Of a stretch of 64,000 nt of DNA, positions 22,101 to 52,500 are shown piece by piece. Position 1 is the stretch's first letter. Each line of letters opens with the position of its first letter. Both the position numbers and the translations under genes were made by a program. Source of the DNA: Perognathus longimembris pacificus (Eukaryota; Chordata; Mammalia; Rodentia; Heteromyidae); the NCBI RefSeq assembly GCF_023159225.1, contig NC_063166.1, forward strand, positions 71,419,575-71,483,574. Reading direction: 5' to 3'. The notes under the pieces are model-generated. The model was not told the origin of the DNA, made no database searches, and worked only from the letters and a program-made list of their open reading frames with translations.

Positions 22101-22102
<2 letters not shown>

Positions 22103-22806: not shown

Positions 22807-22814
22807 GCAGAGCA

Positions 22815-26282: not shown

Positions 26283-26284
<2 letters not shown>

Positions 26285-26350
<66 letters not shown>
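26285..26350. repeat. GT dinucleotide repeat
   Basis: Uninterrupted GT tract of about 33 units. Confidence 0.95.
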
Positions 26351-26351
<1 letters not shown>

Positions 26352-27101
26352 TAGAACGGGAAGTTATAGAACCTTGCAGTTGGCAATCTGTTCATTACAA
26401 TGTCTCTACAAATCTTGAAAATACCTTAGCTCTTCTTAATTCGGTGGCCTTCAACCTTGAAGGGGGCACCAGGAAGGTTAGATAAATTTAGGGCTCATCT
26501 TGCCAGGTTTTATTTAAACAGATGTTCCTTAAGAGGAACAGAGGAGACAGATACAAAAGGAAGGCAGAGACGCCACGCTTGATCTGCTTTTAGTCATCCC
26601 TCAGTCTCTGCAGACCCCAGAGAGGAGTCGATGCTTTTTGGCTAAAGAGTCCTCTAAGCCCTCGTTACATTATAATGTCACAGGGATGAGGCGGGCCAAG
26701 AAGGCCCCCAGAGGGGGAGGACCACAGCTGGGTGGCATTGCTACAGAAAAGAATTCGAGGTAGAGCGCGGAAATTTGATCAGGAAAGCAAGCAAAAAAAA
26801 AATCGTGCACACTCAGACAAGGGTGTGGGCCCCTGAAGAGGGGTACTGAAGTGGTCTAACTTCAGGGGAAGGAATTTAGCTAGAACTTTCCTTAAGGCAA
26901 GTGTGTGTAGCTGGTTTAGCATTTCTTGAGACTGGTGTCTCCTTCGTGTTGAGTGTCTCCCGCATCTCAATCCTGTTGACTGTTTTCACATTAGCAACTG
27001 GGCCCGGAAATGTTTAAGTGGTTGGCTTCCTAAATTTGGGTCTCTGTGAGACAGATTTCTGTTCTCCTTGAGCAGTCTTTTCAACAAAAGAAGGGATTGC
27101 T

Positions 27102-27455
27102 GGCTGCCGGTGGCTCACTCCTGTAATCCTAGCTACTACCCACGAGGCTGACATCTGACCATCTAGGTTTAATATGGCCTAGTGGGAGTGCTTGCCTCGA
27201 ATACATGAGGCCCTGGGTTCGATTCCTCAGCACCACATATACAGAAAACGGCCAGAAGTGGCGCTGTGGCTCAAGTGGCAGAGTGCTAGCCTTGAGCAAA
27301 AAAGACAGTGCTTAGGCCGTGAGTTCACGGCCTAGGATTGGCAATAAATAAATAAATAAATAAATGAAGCCAGCCCAGGCAGAACCAATGAACCACCAAA
27401 ACGAGAAGTAGAGCTCAAGTGGCAGAGTGCTAGCCCCAGGAACTCCCCTGCCCCC
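27102..27455 (+). mobile_element. Mosaic: B1-like half, IDL-Geo, then B1-Geo remnant
   Basis: A B1-like head (GGTGGCTCACTCCTGTAATCC) is cut at about 27,166. An IDL-Geo copy follows (AATATGGCCTAGTGGG to CCTAGGATTGGC plus an AATA tail to about 27,365). The B1-Geo sequence then resumes (GCCAGCCCAGGCAG...AGTGGCAGAGTGC). The simplest reading is an IDL-Geo inserted into a B1-Geo. Confidence 0.7.
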
Positions 27456-28044
27456 CCCCCCCACAGACACAAGGGATCAGATACTCCACCAAGACAGGTG
27501 TTCCTCTGTTAGGTAAATATTCTTTTTTTTGTCACAATTATGTGACCTCCCCTCTGGTAAGTGTCTTCCTGTCAGATACGCTTGTTTTCTTTCCAGGGCA
27601 TTATGATTGCTTGAGAGAGAGAACCACTTTCTTTTCTTTTCTTTTTTTTAACTAAATATTGTAGTTCATGGAGGCAGTGTAAGCCCAAGAGAATAGCATT
27701 CATCCTTCTCATCAAGTTATCCATTAATACGGTGTTTTTCTTAGTTCCAAACTTTTGGTTCCTGTGCACACCCCCGCCAACTAATCTATCCTGCCTCAAA
27801 AAACAAAAAACAAAAAAAAAAACAACCCTTTAATCATTCCAATTGTTCCACCCCATCCAGCCCAGGCAGTTCTGTTCTCTGGACCCTAGATATTCGGATG
27901 GGGGTGGAAGGAAGCTTGCATTTTCTGGAAGCATCACACATTTGTCCCGAGCCTTGTCCCAAGATCAGCAAGCCCTCCCCTCCCCATCCCACCCTCCCTT
28001 CTTGCAACCCTGGTCTGCTCTCCTGGCCCTCCTCCTTACCCCGC

Positions 28045-28085
28045 CCCCCCGCGCCCCCCCCCCCCCCCCCCGCACACACACACCC
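28045..28085. repeat. C homopolymer and CA tract
   Basis: A run of about 18 C followed by CGCACACACACA. Confidence 0.9.
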
Positions 28086-28183
28086 TGAGGAATTTAGAAA
28101 CCCTAAGACAAGGATTGGGCTTTAGTGTTTCAGGAGACAGGAGTCTCTATAGCCAAAAGGCCACAAGGCTAGGTCCCCTCTGT

Positions 28184-28187
<4 letters not shown>

Positions 28188-28222
<35 letters not shown>
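28188..28222. repeat. GT dinucleotide repeat
   Basis: Uninterrupted GT tract. Confidence 0.95.
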
Positions 28223-28224
<2 letters not shown>

Positions 28225-28537
28225 ATATGACCAGTAAAGCTAAGCCCTGACTCAACTGTGGCTGGCTCCTTCCCCCTCTCTCCCACACCCAGAGCAGCCA
28301 TTGCTGGGATTTCTCTCCTCCTCTGCCTCCTCTGCCTCTTCCGCCTCCTCCACGGCCTCCTCCACTCCAGGAGAGGTTCAGCCATGGCCCCTGCTCCAGC
28401 TGCCAATGAATCTGCACTTTGTCTGTGGGTTCAGCAGCCCAGGAAGGGGAGTGGGGGGGATTCCTGGGACAGAAGGCAGGAGCATGCTTCTTCTGAGGCC
28501 CCCATAACCAAATTATACAGCACCAGACATGGGCCTT

Positions 28538-28570
28538 GTCTTCCTTCCTTCCTTCCTTCCTTCCTTTCTT
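28538..28570. repeat. CTTC tetranucleotide repeat
   Basis: CTTC units directly beside the tRNA-like SINE at 28,570 on the other strand, consistent with an expanded tail. Confidence 0.85.
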
Positions 28571-28655
28571 TTTGGTCCAAGACTGAGACTCGAACTCTGT
28601 ACCTGATACGTTCATCAATGGCTGTCACTCTACCAACAGAGCCATAGGTCCGACA
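28570..28655 (-). mobile_element. tRNA-like monomeric SINE
   Basis: On the minus strand ATGGCTCTGTTGGTAGAGTG (A box) is followed by ACAGAGTTCGAGTCTCAG (B box) and a GGAAGGAAGG tail. It is the same kind as the copies at 4,112 and 15,066. Confidence 0.55.
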
Positions 28656-28871
28656 CCCGTGTGCCTCATTTCAAATGTGTATAAACTGGGGACTAAAAAT
28701 AATGCAAATTAATTTTTAAGATTCCAGTTACTTCCTCAAACAGTGCTTTGCACGTCTACCAGACACAGGGAGAAACTTCACATTCAAAAGAAAAAAGGAG
28801 AAAAAGCCTAGGGTGAGTTTTCAACTCTCATTTCCTCCATAGGAAGCAGAAAACTTCTACCTGGTAACAAT

Positions 28872-28872
<1 letters not shown>

Positions 28873-28953
<81 letters not shown>
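28873..28953. repeat. TG then AG dinucleotide repeats
   Basis: About 18 TG units run directly into about 22 AG units. Confidence 0.95.
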
Positions 28954-28955
<2 letters not shown>

Positions 28956-30540
28956 CTGAAATGCTTTGCATGAATGGCTCTCAAGGACCTGTGGTTTTGC
29001 GTGGAAATTTCAGTGATGGAAATTGGCGGAGCCTGATTTCATTGCTGAATCTCACATGTTAAGAGAGAACTTCACGTCTTCTGGTCCTGATTATGGCGGC
29101 TTGTAAGTGGCATTCCCTGCTGACTGAATTTCTCATGTCACCTCCTCAACCTCCTTTCTGCAGCCCGGGCCCTTCATCCACCGTGCAGTAGATGCAATGA
29201 TGATGCATCGGAATGCTGCAAAGGAGACCTGGGAAGTGGCGGGGGGGGGGGGGGGACACTGCAGGGTACCCACACAGCACTGCATCCTCGTGGGTCCAGA
29301 AGAGTGCTTGGCATGAGGAAAATTTGTGTTCTGCTCTTTGGAACTTTCTGGAATCTTTTTAAAGCAAATATTGTTGCTCCACAATTGGTTGAATCTGCAA
29401 ATACGGAACCTGGGTACAGAAGGCCATGGAAGCAGGCCCCCTGGGCACCCCAGGCAGGGACCTAGCCAAGTCCACAGATCACCCTGCATGGGGGCACACG
29501 TAGGTACTTCTGCTCTCTGATAGGAAGTGGGGACCATTGTCCTTCCCCTCCTCCTCTGGGAGAGCTGTCTGGCTCTGTTTCCCCCTCTCCCCCAGCTTTC
29601 TGTTCTTCCCAGACTGCCCTCAGTGCAGAGCCTGGGCCTCATGACCCCTGAAGGCCCTCCCTCCCACCAGCCTGGACCCCATGGCCCCTGAAGACCCTCC
29701 CTCCCACCAGCCTGGGCCCTTGTCTATCTCTCCCTCCTCCTGAAGGCCGGGGACATGGCCGAACCCCATCTCTAGAGTCAGGATGCAGAGCTTCCAACTC
29801 ACCATGTATTTGTAACCAGATGGGGGGGCTGGGGTCCCCTTTTCTGCTGAAAAGGTGGGGGTCACTGATGGGATCCTCTGGTGGGACGTTTGCCATCTGA
29901 GGAAAGCCAGCGGAAGCGGCATCCCGGCAAAATAGACTCGGGACATGGGGCGTAAGGAAAAGAAGTCAGGAATTCAGGAATGAAGGCTGCATGGCTGGTG
30001 GGGAGTGTACCAACACCATTTTGTTTATCTCAAAGCCTCCCCAGCTCCTTCATGGAGCGATAACAAACTGTAAAAAGATGAACTCTCCTTGCTTCAGCTG
30101 ATTGTCAGAGCCTAGGAGTCAAGTGTGCAAACATCCAAAGGAACAGCCTGCTACCCTCCCTCCTTGTATTTGAAAGGTAGTTGTTAAACGTGACAAGAAG
30201 CAGAAGTCTCTTTGGCAAGGGTCTAGAACATGGAGCGCTTGATTGTAAGCAATGTTTAGGAGGATTACTTTTCCCTTCTACATATCCTGCTAAAGCAGCT
30301 CATTAGCATCTTCCCTATGTGCCTTTGCCTTACCAAGAGATGCAACCTTTTTTTGTCTTACTTGCTTACTAAATTTACTAGTCTCTTGTCTTGTGTCACA
30401 GCCTCAAGTTCTTATTCTGTGTCTCAAGACAAGAACCTATAAGCCAAATCAAAGACTTTCCCTTCTTCTTGGGGATACTCACTACCCCCTAGTAATAGCA
30501 TACTTAGAAGTTGACCGGCTTGTTTTAAGATTTCAGTATT

Positions 30541-30790
30541 CACCACGAACTGATGGCTCACACCTATAATCCTAGCTACTCAGGAGGCTGAGATCTGAGG
30601 ATTACATTTTGAAGCCAGCTCAGGCAGGGAAGTCCATGAGATTCTTTTTCTTGATGAATCACCAAAAAAGCTGTAAGTGGAGCTGCCGTTCAAGTGATAG
30701 AGTGGTATCGTGGAGCAAAAAAGCTCAGAGACAGTACCAAGGCCTTGTGTTCAAGTCCTAGGACCAGCATTTAAAAAAAAAAAAAAAAGA
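30541..30790 (+). mobile_element. B1-Geo SINE
   Basis: CACCACGAACTGATGGCTCACACC through GTGTTCAAGTCCTAGGACCAGC and an A tail to 30,790. Confidence 0.8.
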
Positions 30791-30808
30791 GCCAAGTATC
30801 AGTGACTC

Positions 30809-30812
30809 ACTC
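30809..30812. repeat. Provirus target-site duplication, left copy (ACTC)
   Basis: ACTC directly precedes the left LTR. The same four bases follow the right LTR at 34,451-34,454. A 4-bp duplication is typical of gammaretrovirus-type integrases. Confidence 0.85.
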
Positions 30813-31120
30813 TGTTGTGCCAAGTCGCAAGACCACCCCCAAGAAGACCACCGAGATTCAGACACTCCGAAATGCAAAAGCAAGGCAAGGCTTTATTTAA
30901 CGAGCTGCCAACTCGGGCCTCATCCTACCCACCGACACAGCGGAGGTTAGGAGGAAGCCCCGAGCTGTGATTACACAGGGCTTATAAAGGCAAAGAACAA
31001 GGTTACAACAATCAGCTGTGCAAGCAAGATTAGAACACAGGTACAAATCTGATTGGCTCAGGGTTTGATTCTAAAATGGGGTTCACGTGGTGAGGCCTGA
31101 CTTCAAAGTCTGGCACCTCA
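30813..31120 (-). mobile_element. Endogenous retrovirus 3' LTR (308 bp)
   Basis: Bounded by TG...CA in both readings. It matches the LTR at 34,143-34,450 at all but one of 308 positions (A at 30,922 against G at 34,252). In viral (minus) sense it carries a CCAAT box (plus-strand ATTGG near 31,050), a TATA box (plus-strand TTATAAA at 30,982-30,988) and AATAAA (plus-strand TTTATT at 30,892-30,897). Confidence 0.95.
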
Positions 31121-31141
31121 TTTCCCCCTTTTTCTTTTTGG
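31121..31141 (-). other. Retroviral polypurine tract
   Basis: On the minus strand an A/G-only run (AAAAAGAAAAAGGGGGAAA) directly precedes the 3' LTR, as needed for plus-strand priming. Confidence 0.85.
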
Positions 31142-31319
31142 TACCTTGGGAGCCAATCATGGCTCCATTCTGTCCATTTCAATGGCTTGCATGTCTAGGG
31201 GATGATATAGAGGTAAGGCATGGGCCAGTAGGGCCAAAAGTAGTATCCAAAAATAACTCTGGTCCCTCGGTTTTAAAGGGGGGCTGATGGGTGAAGATCA
31301 TCCATCTTCTGTAATCTCT

Positions 31320-32000
31320 TCAGGCTGACTCAGGGGCGTTGACCTTACCTAGCCAGGAACCTATAACCTTAGTCTCAGTCTTGAGGTGAAGGCAAAGCGG
31401 CTGAGTTGGGTGCTTGGAGACCTCCCATGTTCCATCACGGTAGTTGTCATCCAGGGCAAAGGGGTCAGCTGGCCTGGCGTGGAAGCAATGAACCCAAGTG
31501 GCGATGCCGTCTAGGGTCCCTTCCACCGTGGTTCTTAGGATTTCAGTCCCCTGGTCTGAATAAATGGGGGGTAGGGACAGAAGCAGAATCATATCTTTTA
31601 GAGTCCAATTCATTTTCTCTACCTGTGCTGCACTCTGGGGTTTCCGTCCCCAGTGCTGCAGCTATTCCCTGACTTACTTTTGAGACGAAAGCCTGTCCAT
31701 TGTCTGACCCAATGGTGGATGGGAAGCCATACCTGGGTAGGATTTCTTCCAGGATCTTTTTAGCCACTACATTCGCAGTCTCATGCTTTGTTGGATAGGC
31801 TTCAACCCATCCTGAAAAGGTGTCTACAAAAACTAGCAAATATTCTGTGAAATCTACTTCCCAATACACGCCTGGCCTATTCCCACAGAGGCGAGCTCCT
31901 TTAGTAATCTGTTGATTGGGGGCATTGGCAAGCTGACAGGTCTTGCAATTTTTAACAATATACCTTTGCAGGCCTTTAACAGATCTCAATAAGGACACAA
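31320..32000 (-). pseudogene. Retroviral integrase (pol) remnant, frameshifted
   Basis: The first frame (about 32,000 to 31,620) holds a CxxC pair of the zinc-binding N-terminal domain (NCKTCQLAN). It is followed by the catalytic core with its first two acidic residues in VDFTEY and GSDNGQAF. The third catalytic residue (in QVEKMN) lies in a different frame, so the core is broken by a frameshift near 31,620-31,660, and residues between the second and third motifs are missing. The second frame continues into the C-terminal domain (WVHCFHARPADPF) and stops at 31,320. Gammaretrovirus type; not functional. Confidence 0.9.
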
Positions 32001-32351
32001 TCTCAGGTCTACAAGCTTTCTTTCCTTAACAGATGTATCAGCTTAAAATTCTTACTGCCAATCAGAGCTTTTGAGTAAATGCGGGGGGGGGGGGAGGGTG
32101 AGATTTTAATCTATTCTCTCATTTGACAAACTTCCCCTTACTAACCACTATCACAGATGACTGGCAAATTCCTGCCCAGTAGACAGACATGGGCATTGGA
32201 AAGGCATGCTTACGAACTATTCTTCTAGGACTTCCCGGCTTTAACTTTTGAAAGGCCAACAGTAGTGACTCTAGGATCTGACACCATCTCTGCCATCCAA
32301 GCAGTGGCTTACTGCCTCTGGATGCTCCATCACTTTTGTCCCAGGAGGAGT

Positions 32352-32530
32352 GACTTTCGACTTGGACTCAGGGCCTGAGTGCTGTCCCTCAGCTCTCCAG
32401 CTCAAGACTAGCACCGTACCACTTTTGAGCTCCACACCACTCCGTTCCCAGCACTCTGCTGGCTGATTAGAGACAAGTCTCTCACAGGGACCTTTCTTTG
32501 CCCGGGCTGGCTTCGAACCGCAGATTCAGA
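32352..32530 (-). mobile_element. Diverged B1-Geo SINE inside the provirus
   Basis: GACTTGGACTCAGGGCCTGAGTG... GCCCGGGCTGGCTTCGAACC is a reverse-oriented Geo/B1 element with many substitutions. It is far more diverged than the flanking LTRs are from each other. Confidence 0.7.
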
Positions 32531-33174
32531 TCAGTGAGTCTTACAAAAGGCCACTTTACTCCAATTAGAAGCAACAAGGTGGTCCACACAAAAGTAGTTT
32601 TTAAGCATGCTCTTACCTGGAACTTATTAAGGGCCAGTATTAGATCTTGACAAACTTGTAGGAATCACCTGTGCTTCTCTGTGGCCCTGCTGGAAACTGT
32701 TACAAAAAAACTACAAAGAAGCTAGAATGGCAATTAAACATTTTGGTAGCCATAATTCTCCTTTTCTCACTTTGCGATAATTATTTAGGACAATTTTACT
32801 TCCAAATTTCTTATCTAGAAATGTATTCTTGATTTCCAAAGCCTTTTTACTAACCCAACACTTTAGCTTTTATCTGCATTGGAAAAACTGAAGCTCACAG
32901 ACATTCTGAAACCAGGTGCCGCCCTTTGCCTACAGACTGCTTGTTTCAAAAGAGCCTCTTTTTTTTTTTTTCAGTCCCAGTTACTGCATGGCATGAAGAC
33001 CTTTGAACTCACATGACAATTTTTCCTTAATGCAAGAATTACAATTAGAAATACTTATCCATTCAGCTTTCCAATATATTAGTGAGAAACATTGGCCCAT
33101 TTTGCCATTTCTTCCTACATACATAGAGTTAATGAGAGTTTACTTCTATGCCATTAGTTTAATATATATTCTGC
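32531..33174. other. Internal proviral sequence of unknown origin
   Basis: AT-rich, with stops in all frames. It separates the integrase remnant from the gag-like part. I could not recognise any retroviral gene here. Confidence 0.4.
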
Positions 33175-33720
33175 TTAAGAAGGCTGGGTGGGGGTCCCCC
33201 CAGAGTTCTTTCTGTGGACACTCACACTCTGATTGTGAACCATCGCCTGTACATCTTTCCAATGAGCTATGCAGGTTTGACACAGACTGTTAGACTTACA
33301 AACAACACAGAGATGACAGCGCAGCATGGTGAGGTCACTCCCTGCCACCTGTGGGTGGCTTGGGCTGGCCCTACATCCACCCTGTCGGCGGCTGCGGGTC
33401 AGGACTTGGACTCGGGGCTGATGCGTCCCTGTCCTGGGCTGTCGGCGCCGTTGAGTTGACTGGGCAGGACCCTCCGGAGTGGAGGGCACAGCTGAAACAT
33501 TTTCCTCAGAGTCCTCCTCTTGTAGAGTTAACTGGGGTGGGGAGTATGGAGCGGGAAACATTTCCTCCTCCGTGCTTCCTCCCTATGTCAAAGCTCCCTC
33601 AATTTCCTCAAAGGTGGACCATTCTGACTTGCACAGGGTGATCCACTTTTCCTTCTTAAGGGCCACACCTTGGTTCTGAGCTATCTCCTTCTCCCTCCAG
33701 TGAGCTAGGATCAAGTCTAG
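33175..33720 (-). pseudogene. Retroviral gag remnant (matrix-like, then Pro-rich)
   Basis: From about 33,720 the minus frame reads LDLILAHWREKEIAQNQG and on to KSEWSTFEEIEG, resembling the end of a gammaretroviral matrix domain, then hits a stop at about 33,589. The next open stretch (33,561-33,175) is Pro/Ser/Arg/Gln-rich, like the region between matrix and capsid (FPAPYSPPQLTLQEED). No capsid major-homology region or nucleocapsid zinc knuckle is seen. Broken and non-functional. Confidence 0.6.
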
Positions 33721-33804
33721 GGGGCTAGATGGAGGTCCTCAAGATAATACAAAAGGAGGAAAACACACAGGCCTAAGAAAAGCTACGAGTTGGAGATCTC
33801 CCAA

Positions 33805-33932
33805 GCTGGCCCACAACCTCCTACAAGGGTGCAGAAGGAATGGACCCGAGTTGGCCCACAACCTCCTGCAAGAAGGAGTGGATCCGAGTTGGCCCACAAC
33901 CTCCTGCAAGGGTGCAGAAGGAGTGGACCCGA
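33805..33932 (-). repeat. Three tandem 38-45 bp repeats in the proviral leader
   Basis: Units at 33,805-33,849, 33,850-33,887 and 33,888-33,932 share GTTGGCCCACAACCTCCTGC and AAGGAGTGGA. The middle unit lacks 7 bp. They lie between the primer-binding site and the gag remnant. Confidence 0.9.
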
Positions 33933-34122
33933 GTACAAGGTGGGCGGGTTGAGTCTCGTTTAGGAGGCCCTCCTGGTCAGTTCCGGCCAAAAACCAAACT
34001 GACTCGTGCCCTACAAGTATAAGCAAAAGCAAAACAGACAAACAGACAAATTACAGGACAAGACAAATGAACAGCATTGTTTTCTTACCTTCGGAGTCTG
34101 GGATCTCGGGGTCTCTGGGGCT

Positions 34123-34140
34123 ATCCCGGACGAAACCCCA
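34123..34140 (-). other. Retroviral primer-binding site (tRNA-Pro-like)
   Basis: Two bases inside the 5' LTR, the minus strand reads TGGGGTTTCGTCCGGGAT. This matches the 3' end of tRNA-Pro except for two adjacent bases. Confidence 0.75.
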
Positions 34141-34142
34141 AA

Positions 34143-34450
34143 TGTTGTGCCAAGTCGCAAGACCACCCCCAAGAAGACCACCGAGATTCAGACACTCCGA
34201 AATGCAAAAGCAAGGCAAGGCTTTATTTAACGAGCTGCCAACTCGGGCCTCGTCCTACCCACCGACACAGCGGAGGTTAGGAGGAAGCCCCGAGCTGTGA
34301 TTACACAGGGCTTATAAAGGCAAAGAACAAGGTTACAACAATCAGCTGTGCAAGCAAGATTAGAACACAGGTACAAATCTGATTGGCTCAGGGTTTGATT
34401 CTAAAATGGGGTTCACGTGGTGAGGCCTGACTTCAAAGTCTGGCACCTCA
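34143..34450 (-). mobile_element. Endogenous retrovirus 5' LTR (308 bp)
   Basis: Partner of the LTR at 30,813-31,120, with the TATA box at plus-strand 34,312-34,318 and AATAAA at plus-strand 34,222-34,227. The 85-base spacing gives a short R region. Followed by the right ACTC duplication at 34,451-34,454. Confidence 0.95.
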
Positions 34451-36883
34451 ACTCCTGTAATCCTAGCTACTCAAGAGGCTGAGACCTGAGGATCGTGGTT
34501 TAAAGCCAACCTGGGAAGAAAAGTCCCCATGAGTCTCTTATCTCTAATGAACTACTCAAAAAAGCTGGAAGTGGCACTGTGGGTCAAGTGGCAGAGCACC
34601 AGCCAGGAACACGAAGAAAGCTCAGGGACAGTGCCCAGGCCCTGAGTTCAAGCCCCAGGACTGGCAAAAAAAAAAAAAAAAAAAAGATGCAAGTGTCGTA
34701 GCCATGTCCGCATTCCTCTTGTGACTTCATCTCGATGCATTTGCTCACAGATGCCCTCAGATGCAGCAGCCGCCTGAGCTTCCGGGGGTACTGTGAGACT
34801 CTGGGTAGATACGGACTGGAGACATTCAAAAGCACACGACGATGTTCCAAACTGTTAGGTTTATTAAAGTAGGTAGCCGATAAAGGAGAACACCACACGG
34901 TATTCAGGCAGGAAAGAACGTTTATTACCGAACTGCTGGCCTGTGGCCGAGATAATGCATGGCCTGAGAGAAGGGGTGACCCCCACCCGGCCCTGCCTGA
35001 TGCAGGGCAGGGGCAGGAGGGTGTGGCCAGGTGGATTAGGATGTGACCTCAGGGAAGGGGGAATAACTGCCTTCAGGTCTGCCAATTACCCAGATAACTG
35101 GGTGGACCCTTAACCAGGAGGGGAATCGGCATGGAGCCTGTCTGGGGCGGACCTTACACCACCATCCGTCCTGGCTGCTACCTGGAGCTTTCTTCCTGGC
35201 ACAGATTCCAAAGGTAGACAAAGCCAGTGGGGGGGGGGGGGGGGAGGGAGGGGGCGGGACATGGATGACCCAGGTGTGAGGCCAGAGGTGTAGGGGAAAT
35301 CTCTCCTGGAAAGGCAACAAGACCACCACCGTGACTTCACCAGTCTGCGACTCCGTTTTCTCATTTCCTGAAGCGGGGAGTCACTGGCCCTCCCTGGGGT
35401 CCAGCCCTCCCTGTGGGTCAGAGCCTTGGCACTGGCCCCGCCTTGGTCATTCTCCGACAGGTCCTGAGGCTTTGTAGCTGTGGCACAGTGAACAGGAACG
35501 GAGGCTCTAGAACCTGGTCCTCCCGGTGACCCAACCACATTCAGTGGGGCAACAGCCAGGTGCCCTCAGAAGCTGCCCGGGCCTCCTGGCCTGGCATCTG
35601 AAACCCTGCAGGCCCTTGGGGGCCATCCAGGCCCTAGCTAGTCCACATTGTCTTTCCCCTCTGGGTAGGGAGCAAGGATCGAGGTTTCTATTTCTGAGCC
35701 CCCAGGTTTTGAGTTCAAATCCTGCCCCCAGCACTTGTCAGCAGTGTGGTCTAGGACCAAGCATCGGACTTTTTTCTGCACCTTGGTTTCCTCATCTGTG
35801 AAACCAGGCCTTCTTCCCCAGGATTGTTGAGACACAGTCACTTACTCTTGGAAACTAACTGCACGGTATGGATTGGAATCCCAGTGTACTTTATGATTAG
35901 TATCATTTACAGCCTGGGCTCTTGGAAAACACAAGGCCGGAGTGGCAAGTGTCCTTCACCTTACCGTTCTCTTGCTCTCTCATAGGGTGGTGTGTTTGCC
36001 TGTTAATTGGTTCTTGAATGTTCCCAGCCACTTAATAAACCCATGGCAGAATTCCTGCCTCTGGGGCACTCATTTATTTATCCAACAAATATTAAGCGCC
36101 AGGCACTGTGGTAAATGTCAGAGACACATTAATAAATAAAACTGACATTGCCTCCAGTCGGGGGTGGGGGTGTGGCCTTACATCTAGCCAGGGAGAGAGA
36201 CATTCATCAGAGCCCGGGAGAACACATGTATAATTACAAATGGTAATGAGGCATGGTGGAAATAGTAACAAGGGCTTCTCTCATCCACTGGGTAGATAAA
36301 AGAAGCGTTTCCAGAAGGAATGATGAAGGAGCTGACCAGAAGCTGGCCAGGTGAATATGGGAGAAATGTTCATGGGCAGCAGAATTAGCATGTGCAAAGG
36401 GCCAGTGCAACAAGTGCAGACACTAGAAAGGTCAGATTGACATGGGGTAGAGTGCAGAGGGAAGCACGGGGTAGATGCACAATAAACACTCTTGGGGTGC
36501 CTGGTGGTTTATTGGAGGAGAGAGGTGATGTTTTACAGCAGGGCTAGCAAACTACAGCCTATGGGCCAAGTGTGGCTTGTTTTGTGTTTCTCTATGGTCT
36601 GTAAGCTAAAAACATTTTTGTTTGGGGTTTGGGACTTTGTTTTGAGACAAACTCTTACGATGCAGCCCAGGCTGGCTTGGAGTTCTAGAGCTTCCTGCCT
36701 CAGCCTCCCCACTGCTGGGATTACAGGAGTGTGGCATCAAACCTAGCTAAAGAATCATCTTTAGGTTTTGTTTTATTTTTGCTCTCCTGGAGTTGGAACT
36801 CAGACCTGTGCTTGCTAGGTAGGTGCTCTATCACTTGAATGGAACACTCGGCCTGTTTTTTTTTTTTTTTCTTTTGTTTGTTT

Positions 36884-37136
36884 CCCCAAGTCCTGGGCCT
36901 TGAACTCTGGGCCTGGGCACTGTCCGTGAGCTTCTTTCACTCAAGGAAAGCACTTTCCCAACTTTCCCATTTGAGCCACAGCACCACTTCTGGATTTTTT
37001 TTTTTTTTTGAGTAGTTTATTGGAGGTAGTAAGAGTCTCATGGAGTTTCCTGCCTGGGCTAGCTTTGAACCTCAATCCTTAGATCTCAGCCTCGTGAGTA
37101 GCGGGGATTACATTTGTGAGCCACCGGCACCCAGCA
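36884..37136 (-). mobile_element. B1-Geo SINE
   Basis: CAAGTCCTGGGCCTTGAACTC through GAGCCACCGGCACCCAGC. Confidence 0.8.
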
Positions 37137-37626
37137 GCCTGAGTGTTTAATGATTGTAAATGGTCGGAACATCCAAAGAAGAACAATGCCTTGTCCTATG
37201 TGGAAACCACACAGAATGCGCATTTCAGTGTCTGTAAATAAAGCGTTGGAGCGCAGGCACATTTGTTTCCTTGCAGATTTTCTGCGGCCACTTTTGCTTA
37301 GTGTCCGCAACCTGGCATCGGTGTGACTGAGATTTCCGCTCCGCTGGAAATACTGACCGTCTGGCTCTGTGCAGAAAACCCCCTGCTGCGACCACGCCAG
37401 TCCCGCTGTCCTGGCTGTGGGCTCGGCCCCTGTGCAGAGCCTCTGACAATGTGCAGCCTGCCCCATCCTTCAGTCACCAAGCAGGGAATGGCGACTCTGT
37501 AGAAGATTCTGGAGAAGAGCCTCCAGGTGAGGCCCATCACCATTCTGTCCTCACCTTGAGCTGGGGCCACCATAACCTCGAATCATCTAGCCACCAACTC
37601 TTTTTTTGTTTGTTTGTTTGTTTGTT

Positions 37627-37857
37627 TGGTCAGTTGTGGAGCTTGAACTCAGGACCTGGGCGCTGTCCCTGAGCTTTTGTGCTCAAGGCTAGCACTCTAC
37701 CACTTGGAGCCACAGCTCCACTTTGGGTTTTCTGATGGCAAACTGGAGATAAGAGTTTCACAGACTTTGCTGCGTGGGCTGGCTTTGAACCATGATCCTC
37801 ATATCTCAGCCTCCTGAGTAGCTAGGATTATACACGTGAGCCACCAGCACCTGGCTC
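37627..37857 (-). mobile_element. B1-Geo SINE
   Basis: GGTCAGTTGTGGAGCTTGAACTC through GTGAGCCACCAGCACCTGGC, with a TTTG tail at 37,603-37,628. Confidence 0.8.
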
Positions 37858-37997
37858 TAGCCACCAACTATTAAAAAAAAAAAAAAGGCAGGACACCATG
37901 GGATTTCAACTGTGCACAGTGCAAATGAACAGATCAGTCCCTTTACTGAGCACTTACTTTGTGCCCAATATAGCTGTGCATTCAAGCTGCCTCACCA

Positions 37998-38050
37998 GCA
38001 CGCGCACGCGCACGCATGCACACACACACACACACACACACATACACACA
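37998..38050. repeat. CGCA/CA repeat
   Basis: CACGCGCACGCGCACG passes into CA units. Confidence 0.9.
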
Positions 38051-38384
38051 AGACCTAGAGCCCAATTTCATTTCTCCACTTGCAAAATCCAAGTGAAAGG
38101 TAGACAGATGTGGAAAGAAGCGATTTTGCAGCCCTGATGGGAACTGTCACTAGGCAGGAATGACAAATAAAGGCCTCCAAGGCCCTGGGGTCTTGGAAAC
38201 AGCCAAGAAACAGCTGCTAAGGAAGCTGCGGACAGATCCCCACGGTGGCACGCGGGTGCTGATGTGCCAACCCACGGGGAGGACCCCAGGAGCCCCAGTC
38301 ACTGGGGTGCACGGGAACCCTCTGCTCTGCACCCTCCACCCGTATCTTTGCTCCCAAGTTTCCTCCTCCTTACAAATCCAGCTG

Positions 38385-38527
38385 CTTATACTCAGGAGCC
38401 TGAGATCTGTGGATTGCAGTTCAAAGTCAGCAAGTGCTGAAAATGGCGCTGTGGTAGAATGGTAGGGTGCTAGCCTTGAGCAAAAGAAGCTCAGGGACAG
38501 CACCCAGGCCCTGAATTTAAGTCCAGG

Positions 38528-38528
<1 letters not shown>
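38385..38528 (+). mobile_element. B1-Geo SINE with internal deletion
   Basis: TACTCAGGAGCCTGAGATCTG through CTGAATTTAAGTCCAGGG; part of the centre is missing. Confidence 0.7.

Positions 38529-38597
<69 letters not shown>
38529..38597. repeat. GACA then CA repeats
   Basis: About nine GACA units followed by CA units, at the 3' end of the preceding SINE. Confidence 0.95.
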
Positions 38598-38600
<3 letters not shown>

Positions 38601-38661
38601 CTGCCCAACACTCAAGAATAAGAGAACGCTTCCAGCTGACAACCCTTCCATCTCTCCCTAG

Positions 38662-38700
38662 TACTTCCTGCTGCTAGGGGCAGATGCTCTTCTCAAATGA
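38662..38700 (+). CDS. BPI: BPI terminal coding exon
   Basis: After a pyrimidine-rich acceptor (CCATCTCTCCCTAG) the exon reads YFLLLGADALLK and then TGA. This corresponds to the C-terminus of bactericidal/permeability-increasing protein and, like the last LBP exon, starts in phase 0. BPI is a neutrophil granule protein that binds lipid A and kills Gram-negative bacteria. The next 250 bases match the BPI 3' UTR as I recall it. The exon lies 4.7 kb upstream of LBP on the same strand, in the expected BPI-LBP order. No other BPI exon was recognised in the window, so whether this belongs to a working gene is open. Confidence 0.8.
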   Translation, partial: YFLLLGADALLK

Positions 38701-38975
38701 GGTCCCAGCCTGTGCGAGGGGGCAGAGTTCTCACCACCTGTACCCCAGGGGCCATGGCAAAACAGGAGGATTTCCTGGACCTTGCCTGAGCACCCTTTGC
38801 ACACGCCTGTAAAGTCAGATCCAGAAATTACCCAAGCACAGGAATGCATTCACTGGGGGGAAGTATGTGGTGTGTCTTCCCGGATCCCTGAGCCTCTTTC
38901 AAAGCAGGGATTGCATCTCAATTGTCACCATGATTTCCTCCTGTTTTGCTGTGGCTTCTGTGGGCTGGTATTGTT
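38701..38975 (+). other. BPI: BPI 3' untranslated region
   Basis: Words such as AAGTCAGATCCAGAAATTACC, GGAATGCATTCACTGG, GTATGTGGTGTGTCTTC, GAGCCTCTTTCAAAG and TCTCAATTGTCACCATGA keep the order and wording of the human BPI 3' UTR as I remember it. I see no AATAAA inside this interval; the nearest one downstream is at about 39,438. The 3' end is therefore uncertain. Confidence 0.7.
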
Positions 38976-43412: not shown

Positions 43413-43536
43413 ATGGGGGCCTCCGCGGACGCCCTGCCACCCATTCTGCTGGGGCTGCTGCTGGCTGTCACCCCTGGGACTCTGAGTGCCAACCCCGGCC
43501 TGGTGGCCAGGATCACCAGCAAGGGTCTGGAGTATG
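43413..43536 (+). CDS. LBP: LBP exon 1, coding part
   Basis: ATG in GTCCAGGATGG context. Encodes the signal peptide and [16 protein letters not shown]. Donor G|GTAAGA; 124 bases, ends in phase 1. Confidence 0.95.
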
Positions 43537-46500
43537 GTAAGACGCCTTGCGGGGTGGCCGGACCTGCAGGTCTGGCCCCAGGCTGCTCTGGGCACCCATA
43601 GGCACAGCGAGATCCCCTCAACCCTCCCCCATGATGCTGGACAGGACCCCCAGCCATGTGACTCATGCATTGCTGGCGGGAGCTGGGATCCCCCAGGAGT
43701 AGATGGTGGTTTCGGGGAGCCCGGGAGGGAGGGGACAGCTGAGGTGAGGAGGAGTAAGCAGCCGGCAGTGGTTGTGTTACCACATCAGTGCCACCCAGGG
43801 CATGGGGGTGGAGCTTGAAAAGACACTTTAAAGCCAGAAGTCAGAGGGCAGGGGAGGCCCAGGGGACCAGGCAGAGCCTGCTGTGCTGGGCCTGCCATAT
43901 CTGGGTCTGCATGGGGCCCATGTGAGCTTACCAAAGATTTTGAACTATTAGCCTGGTACAGTCAGTTCATGCCTGTAATCCTAGCTCCTCAGGTTGAAAC
44001 CTGAAGATCGAGGTTCAAAGCCAGCCTGAGAAGACAAATTCAAGAGACTCTTAGCACCAATTAAATAGCAAAAAGCTGGGGGCTGAGAATGTGGCTTAGT
44101 GGTAGAGTGCTTGCCTAGCGTGCATGGAGTCCTGGGTTCGATTCCTCAGCACCACATAAACAGAAAACGCCAGAAGTGGCGCTGTGGCTCAAGAGGCAGA
44201 GTGCTAGCCTTGAGCAAAAAGAAGCCAGGGACAGTGCTCAGGAATAAATAAATAAATAGCAAAAAGCTGGATGTGGAAGCGTAGCCTCTCAACCATCCTG
44301 CCCAAGGGATAAGGAAAGGGAAGGGTGATGTATTTCTGCCCCCAAATAGGATACACGTGTGGAACTTCTGCTACTTTTCTAGATGAAAGCAATAATATTT
44401 CTCAGGTAGGTCAGTAGGGCTATGGGATTTCCAGACAGGCCTAGACAGCAATAGGGCCTGCTGCCTGCTGTCTATATCCAAACCCTAGTAGATCCAGAAT
44501 ACTTGCCTCCCGTCCCTTTCCCACCATACACCTGCACCTGCACCCACGATCGTATAACCCATCATCCAAAGTTGGCCATCCCGGTCCTGCCCCGGGTTCT
44601 GAATGGCGTGAGCCCTTCTCTGTGTGTTTCCTGTGTACCAGGCCCCAGAGAGGAGTTTGCTCCTCTCCCCATTGCCAAAAGCCCGGATTCTAGCTCCCCA
44701 GATACTTCCAGTTTCTTCTACCCAGGCCCAATGCAGAGAGAACAGAAGCCAAGGCCACACACCCAAGCCCACAGCTCTCCTCCACCCCTGGTGGGGCTCA
44801 TAAAGACAGTCTATCTGTTACAGGAACACAAAGCAGGCCGAGGGGCACCCAGGCCTGCAGCTGCAATCAATGCTGAGACCAGAAGTGACGTCTGTACCCA
44901 GGGCACATGGGAGCCCTGGAGAGGTTAGAGCAGTAGAGGGGAGCAGGCAGGCCGGACTGACTTCTGTCCTTCCCTTCGCAGCGGCCAAGGAGGGACTGCT
45001 GGCTCTGCAGAGAGACCTGCACAAGATCACCCTGCCGGACTTCACTGGAGACTTCAAAATCCGTCACGTGGGCCGAGGGAGCTACAACTTCCACAGGTGA
45101 CCAGGACCAGGAGGCGGGGGCGGGGGCGGGGGCGGGGGGGGGAACCTGGCAAGCCAGGCAGGGTCCGGGGACTGGGTCAGGATCCTTTGGACAGACAGCA
45201 GGAGGGCACCCGGCTCCTGCTTTCATCATCCAGTGAAGGTCAGCAAGGACCTAGTTGTGTCTGTGACCTGAGCCTCAGTTTCCTCCTCTGTACGAGGCCA
45301 GGAGGGGGATTGTTACTGCTTCCTCCCTTCTGAATGACAATCCAGGAGCCAACCTGGTCAAACCGGAAATAGCCCGGAAGGAAAGATAGGTCTGAAACTT
45401 GAACTACACTAGCTCAATCATTAATGCCGTGTTTTCTAGGTGGGAAAAATCAGAGAAGGCTTCCTAGCAGAGGTGGCACCTTTGCTATCTTAAGGGAACC
45501 ACTAGATATAAGTAGCTTGAGCCTTTAAAAAAAAGGGGGGGGACATGAAATGCTTTTTGAATAATGGACAGTGGAAGGAGGAAGGCAATGAGACCTACAG
45601 CCTCTGACCCCCTTTCATGGTCACAGCTGGGCCAGAGTGGCTTGTGCCTGAGGAGCCAGGTGGCGACTGAAGCAGATCCCACAGAGGTCCCAGAGAAGGG
45701 AGCAGGGGCCCTGGAGCTGCGGGGTGCAGGCCTGGGCCTGAGGCCTCCCTCCACATCTGTATTCCCAGACTGGCGATCCACAGCTGTGAGCTGCCCAGCT
45801 CCACCCTGAAGCCCCTCCCCGGCCAGGGCCTGAGTCTCTCCATCTCCGATTCCTCCATCGGCGTCCAAGGCCAGTGGAAGGTGAAAAAATCTTTCCTGTA
45901 AGTCTGCCCCGCTGGCTGGTCCTGGGGCCTTGACCTTGGCCTCCACCCCTTTTCTTTCTGGTTACAAAGTATTTATTCCTAGCTTATCAGAAAGGTGGCA
46001 AGTTCAGAAAGCAGCCCGGGGTTCATGGAACTAAGTGAGATCGCAGACCTCCTAGGGAAGGGAAGGTGAGAAAGGAGGAAAGAGTCTACCTGAGTGGGGC
46101 ACCGGTGACTCGCCTGTAATCCTAGCTGCTCAGGAGGCTGAGATCTGAGGATCACAGTTCAAAGCTACCCCAGGCACGAAAGTCCAGGAAAAGCTTATCT
46201 TCAATGAGTTGCCAGAAAACTGGAAATGGCGCTTGTGTCTCAAAGTGATAGAGCACTAGCCTTAAGGAGAAAAAAGCTCAGGGACAGCACTCAGGCCCCA
46301 AGTTCAGTCCCCCGTGACCCACTTCCCTGGTAGGGGAAAGCCTGCTGGGGATCCAAGGGACAGGAAGACAGCTGAGACCCAGTACTCAGCTCAGTGGAGG
46401 CACCCCATCTTCCTCTGCCCTTGGGGACATGATCCAGCACTGTGGGTGAGTCTCTGAGCCTCAAGGAAATTGCCAGGACTGCCATAGCAAACACACACTG

Positions 46501-49500
46501 TGGCCAGGGTCAAGATGTAGGGGATCCCGGCTTCTCTCCTGGGCACTGTGTCCTCTCCTGCCTTTCCCCTGGTCCTAAACGTGAGTGTGCCCCCCAAGTT
46601 TGAAAGCCCCCGGTGGGGCTGGGTGAGGACCCAGCCTCCTGACCTCTATTCTGAGTCACTTCTTCAACACAGTTGCATTCTGGGTACTAGGGCCAAGGGC
46701 CCACACACACAAGTTGCGGGAAGAACACAGGTCAGCCCAAAGCACAAGGGCAGCCGGTTCCACGCTGCCTTCCCCTGCATTGGTTCCTTGCTGGCTAACT
46801 GGAGATGGAGCCTGGGCTAGGAATATGGCCTAGTGGTAAAGTGCTCGCCTGGAGATGGAGCCTCACAGACTTTTCTCCCTGGGCTGACCACAAACTGTGA
46901 TCCTCTTGAGAAGCTAGAATTCTAAGTGTGAGCCGCTGGCACTCGGTTTTGTTTTCTCGGGGTTTTCTTTTTTTGGCCAGTCCTGGGCCTTGGACTCAGG
47001 GCCTGAGCACTGTCCCTGGCTTCCTTTTGCTCAAGGCTAGCACTCTGCCACTTGAGCCACAGCACCACTTCTGGCCGTTTTCTGTATATGTGGTGCTGGG
47101 GAATTGAACCCAGGGCCTCATGTACACGAGGCAAGCTCTCTTGCCACTAGGCCATATCCCCAGCCCCTGGCCGTTTTCTGTATATGTGGTGCTGGGGAAT
47201 CGAACCCAGGGCCTCATATATACGAGGCAAGCTCTCTTGCCACTAGGCCATATCCCCAGCCCCTTTACTGTTATATTTTTTGTCTATTTTATTTTACTGA
47301 ACTTTTGTTCACTGGAGTTTGTATGACTGGCGGGATGTGAATCTGACTATCCCTGACTGGCCCTGAGCTCTCTTTTAGTTCTTTAATCTTTTATCTTTGT
47401 TTAGCTCTGCCTTTGGGTTTTTTTGTTTGTTTGTTTGTTTGGGGGTTTTCCCCCCAGTTATGGGACTTGAACTCAGGGCCTGGGTGCTGTCTACTGGTTT
47501 TCTGGTGATTAGCAGAAGAGTCTGAAAGACTTTCCTGCCTGGGCTGGCTTTGAACCACGATCCTCCTATCTCAACCTCCTGAGTAGCTAGGATGACAGGT
47601 GTGAGCCACGAGCACCTGGCTTGGTTTGTTGAGATGAGAGTGGAGTTCTGGTCTCTTCCCCATGATGGCAGAGGGGAGGGGGGAGGGCTCACCTCACGCT
47701 GCCTGCCTGGCCTCCCCCAGGAAGATCCAGGGCTCCTTTGACCTTCACGTCCGGGGCCTTACCATCTCTGTCGACCTTCTCCTGGGCACTGACCCCTCGG
47801 GGAGGCTCACGGTCACTGCCTCCCACTGCAGCAGCCACATCTCTGATGTTGACGTGGACATATCTGGAGGTCTCGGGTAAGTCATCATTGGGAGACCCTC
47901 AGCCTGACCCCCAGTGCAGCCTGTGCCCCCCACCATAGCTCTGCAGGCCCCCTTACTCCCCGCCAGTTCTGGAACAGGAGGCACTCCACGCATGCGCGCA
48001 CGCACACCCACGCACGCACACACGGAGGTAACCCCTCGGAGATCCTGTACACACCAACAGGGGCAAATTTAAGCAAGAGAGTGGGTGTGCCGCTTACACA
48101 GGATAAGTCAACTTTAGGGGACTTTCGTCCAATGAATCAAAGTTGGCTTTTGGCTGAAGGAGAGCGTGTTAAAAAAAAAAAAAAGTGGTCAATTCATGAC
48201 ACCTCTGCATCCTTGATTTGAAAAATGTGGACTCTCCAGCCCCTCCCCCAAGTCCTCTGAACTTGATGGGGGAGGGGAGTAGCTGGGAGTCAGCTGCTCC
48301 GAGCCCAGAGGGAACCTTGTGCTGCAACACTGGGCCCAGTAGGGTGCCGGATGGGGTGCCCCCTCCCCCACCATCCCCCTGTCCAGTGGCAGACTGTCCA
48401 CCGTGGCTCTACTCTGCCCCCTGCTAGGTGGCTCCTGAAACTCTTCCACAACCAGATCGAGTCCAGGTTCCGAAAGGTGCTGGAAGACAAGGTAAGAAGT
48501 GCAAGGCTAGTTGGGTACAGGTAGCTCACACCTATAATCCTGGCTATTCAGGAGGCTGAGATCTGAGGATCTCGGTTCAAAGCCAGCCTGGGGCAGGAAA
48601 GTTTGTGAGGCTCTTATCTCTAATTAACCAGCAAAAAAAATAAAGCTGGAAGTGGAGCTGTGGTTCAAGGGGTAGAGCACCAACCTTGAGTGAAAAAGCT
48701 CAGGGATGGTACCCAGGCCCTGAGTTCAAGATCCAGTACTGGAACAAAAGAGGAGGAGGGGGAGGATGTCCGTGGCTCTGTCAGGCCAGGCTAGACCAAG
48801 CGTGGCCAGGTGGCTGTCCTCACCGGCCCCTGGCTCTAGACAGATGATGGTGGCTGCTTTGGACACACTGGGGTCCACAGTCCGGAGGTGACAAGCCACT
48901 TCCTGGAGTCACAGAGCTGGAGTGTGGCCAAGCTCAGGGCCACACTCAGGTTTCTGGACTCCACATCCATCTAGTTACAGAAGGTGTTGGCTGCTTGCCC
49001 ACCCATGGGTAAAACAAAGGCAGAACAGGGGTGGGGGGGAGGAGGTGAAAAGAGACCTCAGTCTGCACACTCAGCTTTGCACACTTGGCCTTGCTCACTT
49101 CCCCACACTGCCCTTGGTCCCCAAGGCCAAAAGCAGCCATCACTCAGCTGCCCTAGGAGACAGGCGTGGTGGAGCCGGGCAAGCCTGTGCAGGGAGCAGG
49201 GGAGGGGAAGGGACCACGGGGTCAGAGTTCCCTGTTCAAAAGTATTGTGAAATGTCCAGACTTGGTACACTTTGGCTAACGCAAGAAGGTAGCCAGTTCA
49301 TGTCCAGTTCCTCTACACTCTCACCCCCACCTTGGGGAGCTGTGTCTATAGGACTGTGTGGAAAGGGAGGGAGAAAGGGACACGAGGAACGATCTTTCTC
49401 TGTCTCTGTCTCTGTCTGTCTCTGTCTGTCTCTGTCTCTGTATCTCTGTCTCTGTCTGTCTCTGTCTCTCTTCTCTCTCTGTCTCTGTCTCTGTCTGTCT

Positions 49501-49529
49501 CTGTCTGTCTCTGTCTCTCTGTCTCTCTG

Positions 49530-49568
<39 letters not shown>

Positions 49569-52500
49569 CCCCCAACCTTTGGTTTGTCTTTGTGTGCCCC
49601 CTGGTGGTTGAAGCAGGAATAACAGACACAGCCCTACCACCCCCAACCCCCAACCCTCACTGCTTCCTCTCTGATTCTGGGGTTCTAAGATCTAAATGAA
49701 CTGGAGAAATGCAAGCCCTCCTGCTCCAGCACCCCGGGTGCTGCCTTATATCCCCCTGTGGACGATGAGGAGAGCAGTGGTTAGTAATAGTATTATGTAA
49801 CAATAATAAGGCATTGCAGTTAAGTGCAACAATTATCACAGCACCTGGGATCATTACTGTTTTGAGAAAATGCTGCAGAACGTATTATTGTACAGTTATT
49901 CCTTTTTTGTGATGATCCTAGGGCTTGAACTCAGGGCCTGGGTGCTGTCCTTTAACTCTTTTTTGTTTTTTTGCTTAAGGCTAGCACTCTACCACTTGAG
50001 CCGCAGCTCCACTTGCAGTTTTCTGGTGGTTCATTGGAGATGAGATTCTCACGGACTTTCTTACCTGGGCTGGCTTCAAACTGGGATCCCCAGATCTCAG
50101 CCTCCTGAGTAGCTAGGATGACAGGAGCAAGCCACCAGCACCGGCTTAGAAAGCATCTTTTATGGGGGTCTCTCTAACCCACCATCTTTTGGGGGGGCCT
50201 CCCCAGCCCACGCCTTCTACCTTGCTCAGATGCTTGACTTTGTGGGGGGGGGCACCTGAGCTGTCCATTTGGTTCTCTTGGGGACCACAGGGCATCCACA
50301 TGCTTTTTAATCATTTTGTCTTCTTGTGCCTGGCCTGTGACAAGCTCCTAGAGCTGTTTGGGGAATCCACAATCACCAAGCAGACTTGGAAATCATGTTT
50401 CTACAGCGCCAACCCAGGGCTGGCCCAACGCAGGGGAAGCCGCTCAGCCCTGCCTCTCTCTCTCTGTTCATCAGGTTTGTGAAATGGTCCAGAAATCAGT
50501 GGCCTCGGACCTGCAGCCTTATCTCCAAACCCTGCCAGGTAACTGGTGCTCCGCCGACCCCTGGGATTCCATTTCTGTTTGGTTCCATAAGACAGTCTGT
50601 CTCTCAAACATAAAGGGGATGGAAGTGTAGAAAAGGACAATTTACAAGCGCTTTGTGCCTCAGTTTTTCTTCCAGCAGGTGGCCTTGATGTGGGGGTGTA
50701 TTTAAGATGTTTAAGGTATTTTCTCTGTGTGTCAGTATGGGAACAGAAGCTCTTGTACGCATCCTTGTTTGTGTTAATATCGGCATGTACGTAATTGTGG
50801 TGCATATCCATTAGTGTACACAAGACACACATTATTGTACACTCACTTCCTTTAAAGCCTCTGTAGCTTAGGGAAACTTCTAGGTCAGCCTACGTCAAAT
50901 GAAGTCATTTTTTTTAGAACTTTTTGAAGTGCTGGGATTTGAACACCAGGCGTTGCGCTTGCAGATACAGGTTTTCTACCACTGAGCCACACCTCTAGCC
51001 CATTTTTCTCTTGGTATTTTTTAGATAGGACCTTCCTTTTTTTTGCCTGAGCATGTGCCTAGACTGTGATCCTCCCGTTTATTCTTCCTGTCATGGCTGG
51101 GATGATAGGAGTATACCACTGCACCCAGCTTTTATTGATTGAGATGGGGGGTGGTGACAGAGGGTCCCACTAAATTTTTGCCAGGGTGGCCTCAAATTTT
51201 CATCTTTCTTTTCTTTCTTTTTTTTTTTTTTTTTGCCAGTCCTGGGCTTGGACTCAGGGCCTGAGCACTGTCCCTGGCCTATTTCTGCTCAAGGCTAGCA
51301 CTCTGCCACTTGAGCCACAGTGCCACTTCTGGCTGTTTTCTACATATGTGGTGCTGGGGAATCGAACCCATTGCTTCATGTATACAAGGCAAGCACTCTT
51401 GCCACTAGGCCATATTCCCAGCCCTCATCTTTCTGATCTACACCTCCCACGTCGTCATGATGACAGGGGCAAGCTGGTTTTGATCACACCATTCTAGTGT
51501 GACTGTCTAGAGTGGGTCCTTGGTTCTTTGCACCCATGAGAAACACAGAAAGACAGTGCCTGAGGATTGTCTGGGATTCTCTGATGCTAGTGCTGGTTCG
51601 CCCAAGTCTCAGGCCAAGGGACACAGCACCCTTGCTCTCCATGGCTTTAGGGAGAGTCTGAACCCATGCCTTCACCTCTTCTGGGGCTGGGGCTGGGACT
51701 GGGCCAGGCAGGTGGGGCGGGGCTCTAGGGGAAGCCCCAGATGTGAGTATCAGCCAGAAGCTTCTTCTCTTCTCCATGTGCCTAGGCAGGGCCTGGTCCA
51801 TCATCCTATGTCTGTCTGCTTTACAGTCACTGCCAAGATTGACAGCCTGGCAGGCATCGACTACAGTCTCGTGGGGCCCCCTCAGGCCACGGCCCAGGCA
51901 CTGGACTTGATGTTTAAGGTGAGGCCTTGCAGCAAGGGGAGCCCGGCCACCCCGCAGAGTTCCCTCAGACTGAGACCAGCCCCTGGGGCCACCCACCCTC
52001 CTAACACCAGATCTGCCCCTGCCTCCCCAGCCATTCTTGTTCTTGCTGTGCCAGAGGTGGGGCAATGTGGAGCCATGGGGAGCCACCCACCCTTCCCCTC
52101 TTCCTGCTGCAGTAGGGGTGCTCTCAGGGGGGACTGGATAGTGCATCCTGGGAGTTTCCTAAACCCATCCTGGCCCGGAGTAACAGTGGATTGCACAGGG
52201 CAGTCTCTGCTGGAGTCGCTGCCCGGGTGACTCCAGGCTGTGAAAAGTCTGATGGGATCTGTCTTCTCTCTCCAGGGTGAAATCTTCGATCTCCACAATC
52301 GCTCCAAGGTGGCTGCTCCCGTTCCAGTCATGAGCCTTCCCGAGGATAACCAGCAAATGGTCTACTTTGCCATCTCTGGTCATGTCTTCAACATCGCCAG
52401 CCACGTTTATCAGCAGGCAGGGTACCTGAGCTTCTTCATTACAGATGACATGGTGAGGAGGGAAGCAGGACGGGGGCTCTCCCTCACTCTGTGAGACTGT

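What the first reader, a model, noticed from the sequence alone, without database searches (positions are those of the whole stretch)
38662..38975. BPI terminal exon and 3' UTR present, but no other BPI exon seen
The exon YFLLLGADALLK-stop, its splice acceptor and the following 3' UTR are clearly BPI-like and sit where BPI should end. LBP exons, diverged from the same ancestor, were easy to find at 43-62 kb, yet none of the other 14 BPI exons was recognised in the 38 kb upstream. BPI may be partly deleted, decayed, or displaced in this lineage, leaving LBP without its antagonistic partner. By-eye search can miss diverged short exons.
Basis: partly seen in the sequence, partly recalled or inferred. 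Interest (0 to 1): 0.75.

Follow-up and report, generated by a model that had tools for sequence, protein, structure and literature searches.

The report
Pocket mouse BPI gene almost deleted
A desert rodent's gene for the bacteria-killing neutrophil protein BPI appears to have been removed except for its tiny last exon, while the neighbouring sister gene LBP is whole, and annotated relatives may lack BPI too.

Summary
38662-38700 is a BPI-type last exon; it scores 20.4 bits on a BPI-tail profile, against at most 12.1 in 200 random windows. The window lies in the Perognathus longimembris pacificus assembly. Searches for BPI exons 1-14 found none in 1-38,661 or 120 kb further upstream, and none among the best candidates of the 2.21-Gb assembly. 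The same searches recover most LBP exons and most of a third paralogue. Simulated decay leaves some exons detectable up to 30-35% substitution, so deletion of exons 1-14 fits better than slow decay. A beaver-BPI protein search names no geomyoid among its top 120 of 373, although LBPs of Perognathus, Dipodomys and Thomomys are in the same database; loss before their split is likely, not proven. A third BPI/LBP-family gene about 22-41 kb beyond the window groups neither with BPI (AU p 0.003) nor with geomyoid LBP (p 0.0003). Its N half is cationic, so 'LBP without a partner' may be too simple.

The parts
38660..38661 (+). splice acceptor AG of the BPI relic exon
   Evidence: read directly; phase 0 as in the LBP last exon at 61994
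38662..38700 (+). BPI last exon (exon 15), YFLLLGADALLK plus TGA; the only recognised piece of BPI
   Evidence: 20.4 bits, 0 of 200 shuffled windows as high; DNA search of the genome with 38641-38975 finds only itself
1..38659 (+). interval where BPI exons 1-14 should lie; none found; no N; holds repeats, an endogenous retrovirus and a pseudogene-like frame
   Evidence: (no N)
43413..62038 (+). LBP gene, 15 coding exons recognised (exon 11 at 55986-56054)
   Evidence: 15 of 15 by profile without mutation; matches P0121, LBP of Perognathus longimembris pacificus

Best explanation
This is the remnant of a lost BPI gene. In the ancestry of this pocket mouse, a deletion (one or several steps) removed BPI exons 1-14 between KIAA1755 and LBP. 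It left the 12-codon last exon with its acceptor and stop, and left LBP whole. Without exons 1-14 there is no signal peptide, no LPS-binding N-terminal barrel and no lipid pocket, so no BPI protein can be made. The short exon probably persists only because 39 bases of neutral DNA decay slowly. Shown: presence of the exon, failure to find the rest in locus and assembly, intact LBP. Inferred: that deletion rather than decay did it, and that the loss predates the split of Perognathus, Dipodomys and Thomomys, because no BPI protein named for these genera appeared in the search listings.
For: The relic exon is far above chance and of BPI rather than LBP type. 13 BPI proteins and a 42-BPI HMM find nothing convincing upstream while finding the more distant LBP (12 of 15 exons at E<=0.1) and the third gene (10 exons at E<0.02). 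Whole-genome searches with beaver BPI (13 matches: 7 LBP, 4 third paralogue, 1 on C1, 1 on C6 5.4 Mb away) and human BPI (12 matches: 7 LBP, 4 third paralogue, 1 on C1) find no BPI. The locus is nearly gap-free: no N in the window, one run of 76 N in the 120 kb upstream, and TGM2 about 91 kb before the window start. Dog order is TGM2, KIAA1755, BPI, LBP, RALGAPB (PMC5381864, table passage). Decay simulation on LBP as stand-in: 5-9 of 15 exons still detected at 20% substitution, 1-3 at 30%, 1 at 35%, 0 at 40%. Beaver BPI search: 373 proteins, none of the 120 listed is named as Perognathus, Dipodomys or Thomomys, while squirrels, guinea-pig-like rodents, a jerboa and mouse-like rodents are listed; LBPs of all three genera are in that database. 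The three unnamed BPIs in that listing group with artiodactyls or bats, not with beaver.
Against: One assembly only; no reads, no second Perognathus genome and no relative's DNA could be examined, so a misassembly or a polymorphic deletion is not excluded. Genome searches score only the best candidates. Only the top 120 of 373 proteins are visible, and models under 0.55 of the query's length are never candidates. The breakpoints are unknown. BPI evolves faster than LBP, so the decay simulation overstates power somewhat. The interval is still 38 kb long, so any deletion must be partly masked by insertions or have been flanked by long non-coding DNA.
Confidence: 0.86

Rival explanations
1. Assembly artefact: BPI exons 1-14 exist in the animal but the assembly dropped or mis-joined them just upstream of exon 15.
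For: Only one assembly was seen. Simple repeats (GACA/CA) and a stretch that I recall as SINE-like lie right beside the exon (about 38430-38600), the kind of place where joins can go wrong.
Against: No N in the window and chromosome-scale contigs (C6 is 86.9 Mb). Dropped sequence would often sit on another of the 6180 contigs, yet genome-wide searches find none. No BPI named for Dipodomys or Thomomys, which rest on other assemblies, is in the listing.
Confidence: 0.08
2. Displacement: BPI survives elsewhere, for example as the BPI/LBP-like gene about 22-41 kb beyond the window end.
For: That gene ends in NFLLLGAD, as BPI does, and its N half is cationic (+11, crude count).
Against: The tree puts it beside LBP (100/99); grouping it with mammalian BPI is rejected (AU p 0.00333; groups named after the tree was seen, and its branch is long). 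A leftover BPI last exon still marks the original BPI site. No other good candidate in the genome searches.
Confidence: 0.03
3. Decay in place: BPI was inactivated long ago and exons 1-14 drifted beyond recognition while exon 15 happened to stay readable.
For: The interval is still long (38 kb), and short exons are easily missed.
Against: At least one of 15 exons stays detectable up to 35% substitution in simulation. Exon 15 keeps its acceptor, frame, stop and FLLLGAD, so the local sequence has probably not drifted that far.
Confidence: 0.08
4. The 12-codon exon is a chance open frame or a copied LBP exon rather than BPI.
For: It is only 39 bases long including the stop.
Against: 0 of 200 shuffled windows score as high. 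Length and GAD match the usual BPI tail, not the 23 LBP tails. It sits in the BPI position on the right strand.
Confidence: 0.03

Closest known systems
Mammalian BPI (LBP/BPI/CETP family)
   Same: Last exon of 12 codons with F-L-x-x-G-A-D, located just upstream of LBP on the same strand
   Different: Exons 1-14 not found, so no protein; a relic only
Chicken absence of LBP (PMC3253384; title and passages seen)
   Same: One of the adjacent BPI/LBP pair is missing from the genome while the other stays
   Different: There LBP is missing and BPI kept; the passages seen place the appearance of LBP in the therian lineage and warn of assembly gaps next to BPI. Here BPI is the missing one and a relic exon speaks for its former presence
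Bpi-knockout mice (PMC8187252, passages; PMC8107240 and PMC7858664, listing and abstract start only)
   Same: A rodent living without BPI
   Different: Engineered and, by the passages and abstract starts seen, impaired in clearing Pseudomonas aeruginosa or with worse experimental colitis; here the loss is natural
Other rodent immune-gene losses, such as CCL16 in Glires (PMC6383237, listing and abstract start)
   Same: Loss of an innate immune gene in some rodent lineages
   Different: Described there as pseudogenisation; here most of the gene is not found at all

Membership tests
Functional BPI gene | In-frame exons coding both barrel domains (PF01273, PF02886) | tested here: not met
   no exon 1-14 found in locus or assembly
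Functional BPI gene | First exon with signal peptide | tested here: not met
   BPI exon 1 not found, though exon 1 of LBP and of the third gene are recovered by the BPI HMM (E 0.002 and 0.014)
BPI gene relic | BPI-type last exon with acceptor and stop | tested here: met
BPI gene relic | Syntenic position between TGM2/KIAA1755 and LBP | tested here: met
   TGM2 frame upstream, LBP downstream, dog order in PMC5381864; the KIAA1755 label of frames about 0.8 to 5.9 kb before the window is recalled, and Pfam gave no hit for the two scanned
BPI gene relic | Homology of flanking intron 14 and 3' UTR to BPI of relatives | not testable with these tools
   no rodent genomic DNA other than this assembly was available
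Third downstream gene as BPI orthologue | Groups with mammalian BPI | tested here: not met
   sister to LBP 100/99; union with 11 placental BPIs rejected, AU p 0.00333

The most novel reading that the evidence does not exclude
A whole rodent superfamily (Geomyoidea: pocket mice, kangaroo rats, pocket gophers) lost BPI before its radiation, and BPI's role was taken over by a third, cationic, LBP-related gene kept downstream of LBP. That would make these animals natural BPI knockouts with a replacement LPS-handling protein.
Probability: 0.2. Interest if true: 0.7.

Novelty: new member of a known kind. Interest (0 to 1): 0.5.

Why it matters
BPI blunts LPS signalling and kills or opsonises Gram-negative bacteria, while LBP amplifies LPS signalling (PMC8187252, passages). 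A wild lineage that keeps LBP but has lost BPI is a natural test of how dispensable BPI is and of what compensates. Nine text searches of the held library ran. No paper holds both BPI and Dipodomys or BPI, LBP and kangaroo rat, and I saw no title on BPI loss in these rodents in the other listings.

Tried and rejected
Displaced BPI: not supported by two genome searches and an AU test. Recent geomyoid LBP duplication as the origin of the third gene: rejected (AU p 0.000321). Geomyoid BPI hidden among the unnamed database proteins of the listing: P0013, P0018 and P0056 group with artiodactyls or bats. The endogenous retrovirus as cause of the deletion: unlikely, because its two 308-base LTRs are 99.7% identical, so it inserted recently, probably after the loss if that loss is shared. 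Charge shift of geomyoid LBP towards BPI: at most slight (N half +2 to +5 in 4 geomyoid LBPs against -3 to +3 in 10 others), still far below most BPIs (crude counts of residues 26-225, without checking signal-peptide lengths). Misassembly signs from long near-identical repeats in 1-43,400: of the 25 longest repeat pairs listed, only the LTR pair is nearly identical over 300 bases. The 3' UTR claim and the breakpoints could not be tested for want of relatives' DNA.

Full report
What was claimed.

The exon is real. At 38662-38700 the sequence reads, after an acceptor AG, TAC TTC CTG CTG CTA GGG GCA GAT GCT CTT CTC AAA TGA. A profile of 36 mammalian BPI tails, applied to every AG followed by 10-17 open codons on both strands, ranks this site first in the window (20.4 bits), ahead of the genuine LBP last exon (17.9 bits). 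The next site scores 4.9, and the best of 200 Markov-shuffled windows scores 12.1. Length (12 codons) and GAD match the usual BPI tail; the 23 LBP tails read have GAN and are two residues longer. A DNA search of the genome with 38641-38975 finds only the window itself.

Species and place. The window is C6:71419575-71483574 of a 2.21-Gb assembly. Its LBP matches the Perognathus longimembris pacificus LBP (95%; the query lacked exon 11), and the contig length given for that record, 86,909,130, equals that of C6. Fifteen LBP exons are recognised. A TGM2 frame lies about 91 kb before the window start. Frames that I recall as KIAA1755 lie just outside the window start; Pfam gave no hit for the two scanned. 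The dog order TGM2, KIAA1755, BPI, LBP, RALGAPB is in PMC5381864 (table passage).

The other 14 exons were not found. Thirteen BPI proteins by sensitive tblastn give nothing better than E 0.07 upstream of the relic, while each gets 8-12 matches at E<0.1 in the LBP stretch of the same window. An HMM of 42 BPIs, run on six-frame pieces of 264 kb (120 kb upstream, the window, 80 kb downstream), gives at most 4.1 bits anywhere upstream of LBP. It finds 12 of 15 LBP exons at E<=0.1 and 10 exons of a third family member at E<0.02. These controls are more distant from BPI than true BPI exons should be. Exons 11, 12 and 15 are too short for this test; the relic itself is not among the HMM's listed hits. 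Genome-wide, beaver BPI gives 13 matches (7 LBP, 4 third gene, 1 on C1 at 33%, 1 on C6 5.4 Mb away at 40%) and human BPI gives 12 (7 LBP, 4 third gene, 1 on C1 at 31%). These searches scored 15 and 14 candidates. I take the C1 and distant C6 matches to be BPIF-family genes from memory and did not test it. Further genome searches with ground-squirrel BPI and with the LBP as control did not complete (56, 59).

Deletion rather than decay. Mutating the LBP region and searching with an LBP profile of 20 sequences without geomyoid members, 5-9 of 15 exons are still found at 20% substitution, 1-3 at 30%, 1 at 35% and none at 40% (five replicates each). Exon 15 keeps frame, stop, acceptor and its core motif, so drift past 35% all around it is unlikely. 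BPI changes faster than LBP, so the real power is somewhat lower. There is no N in the window.

A wider loss. With beaver BPI as query, 373 database proteins match. The 120 listed include squirrels, guinea-pig-like rodents, a jerboa and mouse-like rodents, but none named as Perognathus, Dipodomys or Thomomys, although LBPs of all three are in the same database. The three unnamed entries of that listing, placed on a quick tree, lie with artiodactyls and bats. A full-length geomyoid BPI should have ranked high. The simplest reading is loss in the common ancestor; fragmentary models and the 253 unlisted proteins were not seen, so this step is inferred.

A third gene. Downstream of the window (85.8-105.1 kb in window coordinates, about 22-41 kb past its end) lies a collinear BPI/LBP-family gene with GT-AG introns, except that exon 9 has no in-phase acceptor. 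Skipping it keeps the frame and gives 465 residues with both Pfam domains; whether the gene is functional is open. It is sister to mammalian LBP (100/99) on a long branch. Grouping it with 11 placental BPIs (p 0.00333) or with 4 geomyoid LBPs (p 0.000321) is rejected, though the groups were named after the tree was seen and long branches weaken such tests. Its N half has net charge +11, against -3 to +5 in 14 LBPs and +2 to +27 in 11 placental BPIs (crude count). It could supply a BPI-like activity; that is speculation.

Verdict. A BPI gene relic: exon 15 only, loss real with about 86% confidence, loss shared by geomyoids with about 75%. It is a new instance of a known kind of event, of interest because LBP stays without BPI, roughly the mirror of the chicken, where LBP is absent (PMC3253384, passages).

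Noticed in passing
window 30813-34450: Endogenous retrovirus flanked by two 308-base direct repeats 99.7% identical (LTRs), with a minus-strand integrase frame and a weak, sub-cutoff gag-like match inside; a recent insertion, internally short.
   Followed up: partly
85824-105078 in window coordinates, beyond the window (C6 about 71505398-71524652): A third BPI/LBP-family gene downstream of LBP, sister to LBP on the tree, cationic N half, exon 9 without an in-phase acceptor.
   Followed up: partly
window 14029-14442, minus strand: Open frame with a partial NAD-dependent epimerase match that I recall as threonine dehydrogenase; probably a processed pseudogene.
   Followed up: no
window coordinates 64001-69000 (just past the window end): Exactly 5,000 N begin at the window end in the genome record; gap or withheld stretch, not known which.
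   Followed up: no
window 38521-38600: (GACA)n(CA)n simple repeat beside a stretch recalled as SINE-like, immediately upstream of the relic exon; a possible breakpoint region.
   Followed up: no
window 8673-9014: Tandem repeat in a GC-rich part with long open frames (proline/serine/glutamine-rich), self-similar at 84%.
   Followed up: no
LBP of Perognathus, Dipodomys and Thomomys (P0121, P0122, P0127, P0123): N-half net charge slightly higher (+2 to +5) than in 10 other mammal LBPs (-3 to +3) in a crude count; one shared event at most, not tested further.
   Followed up: no
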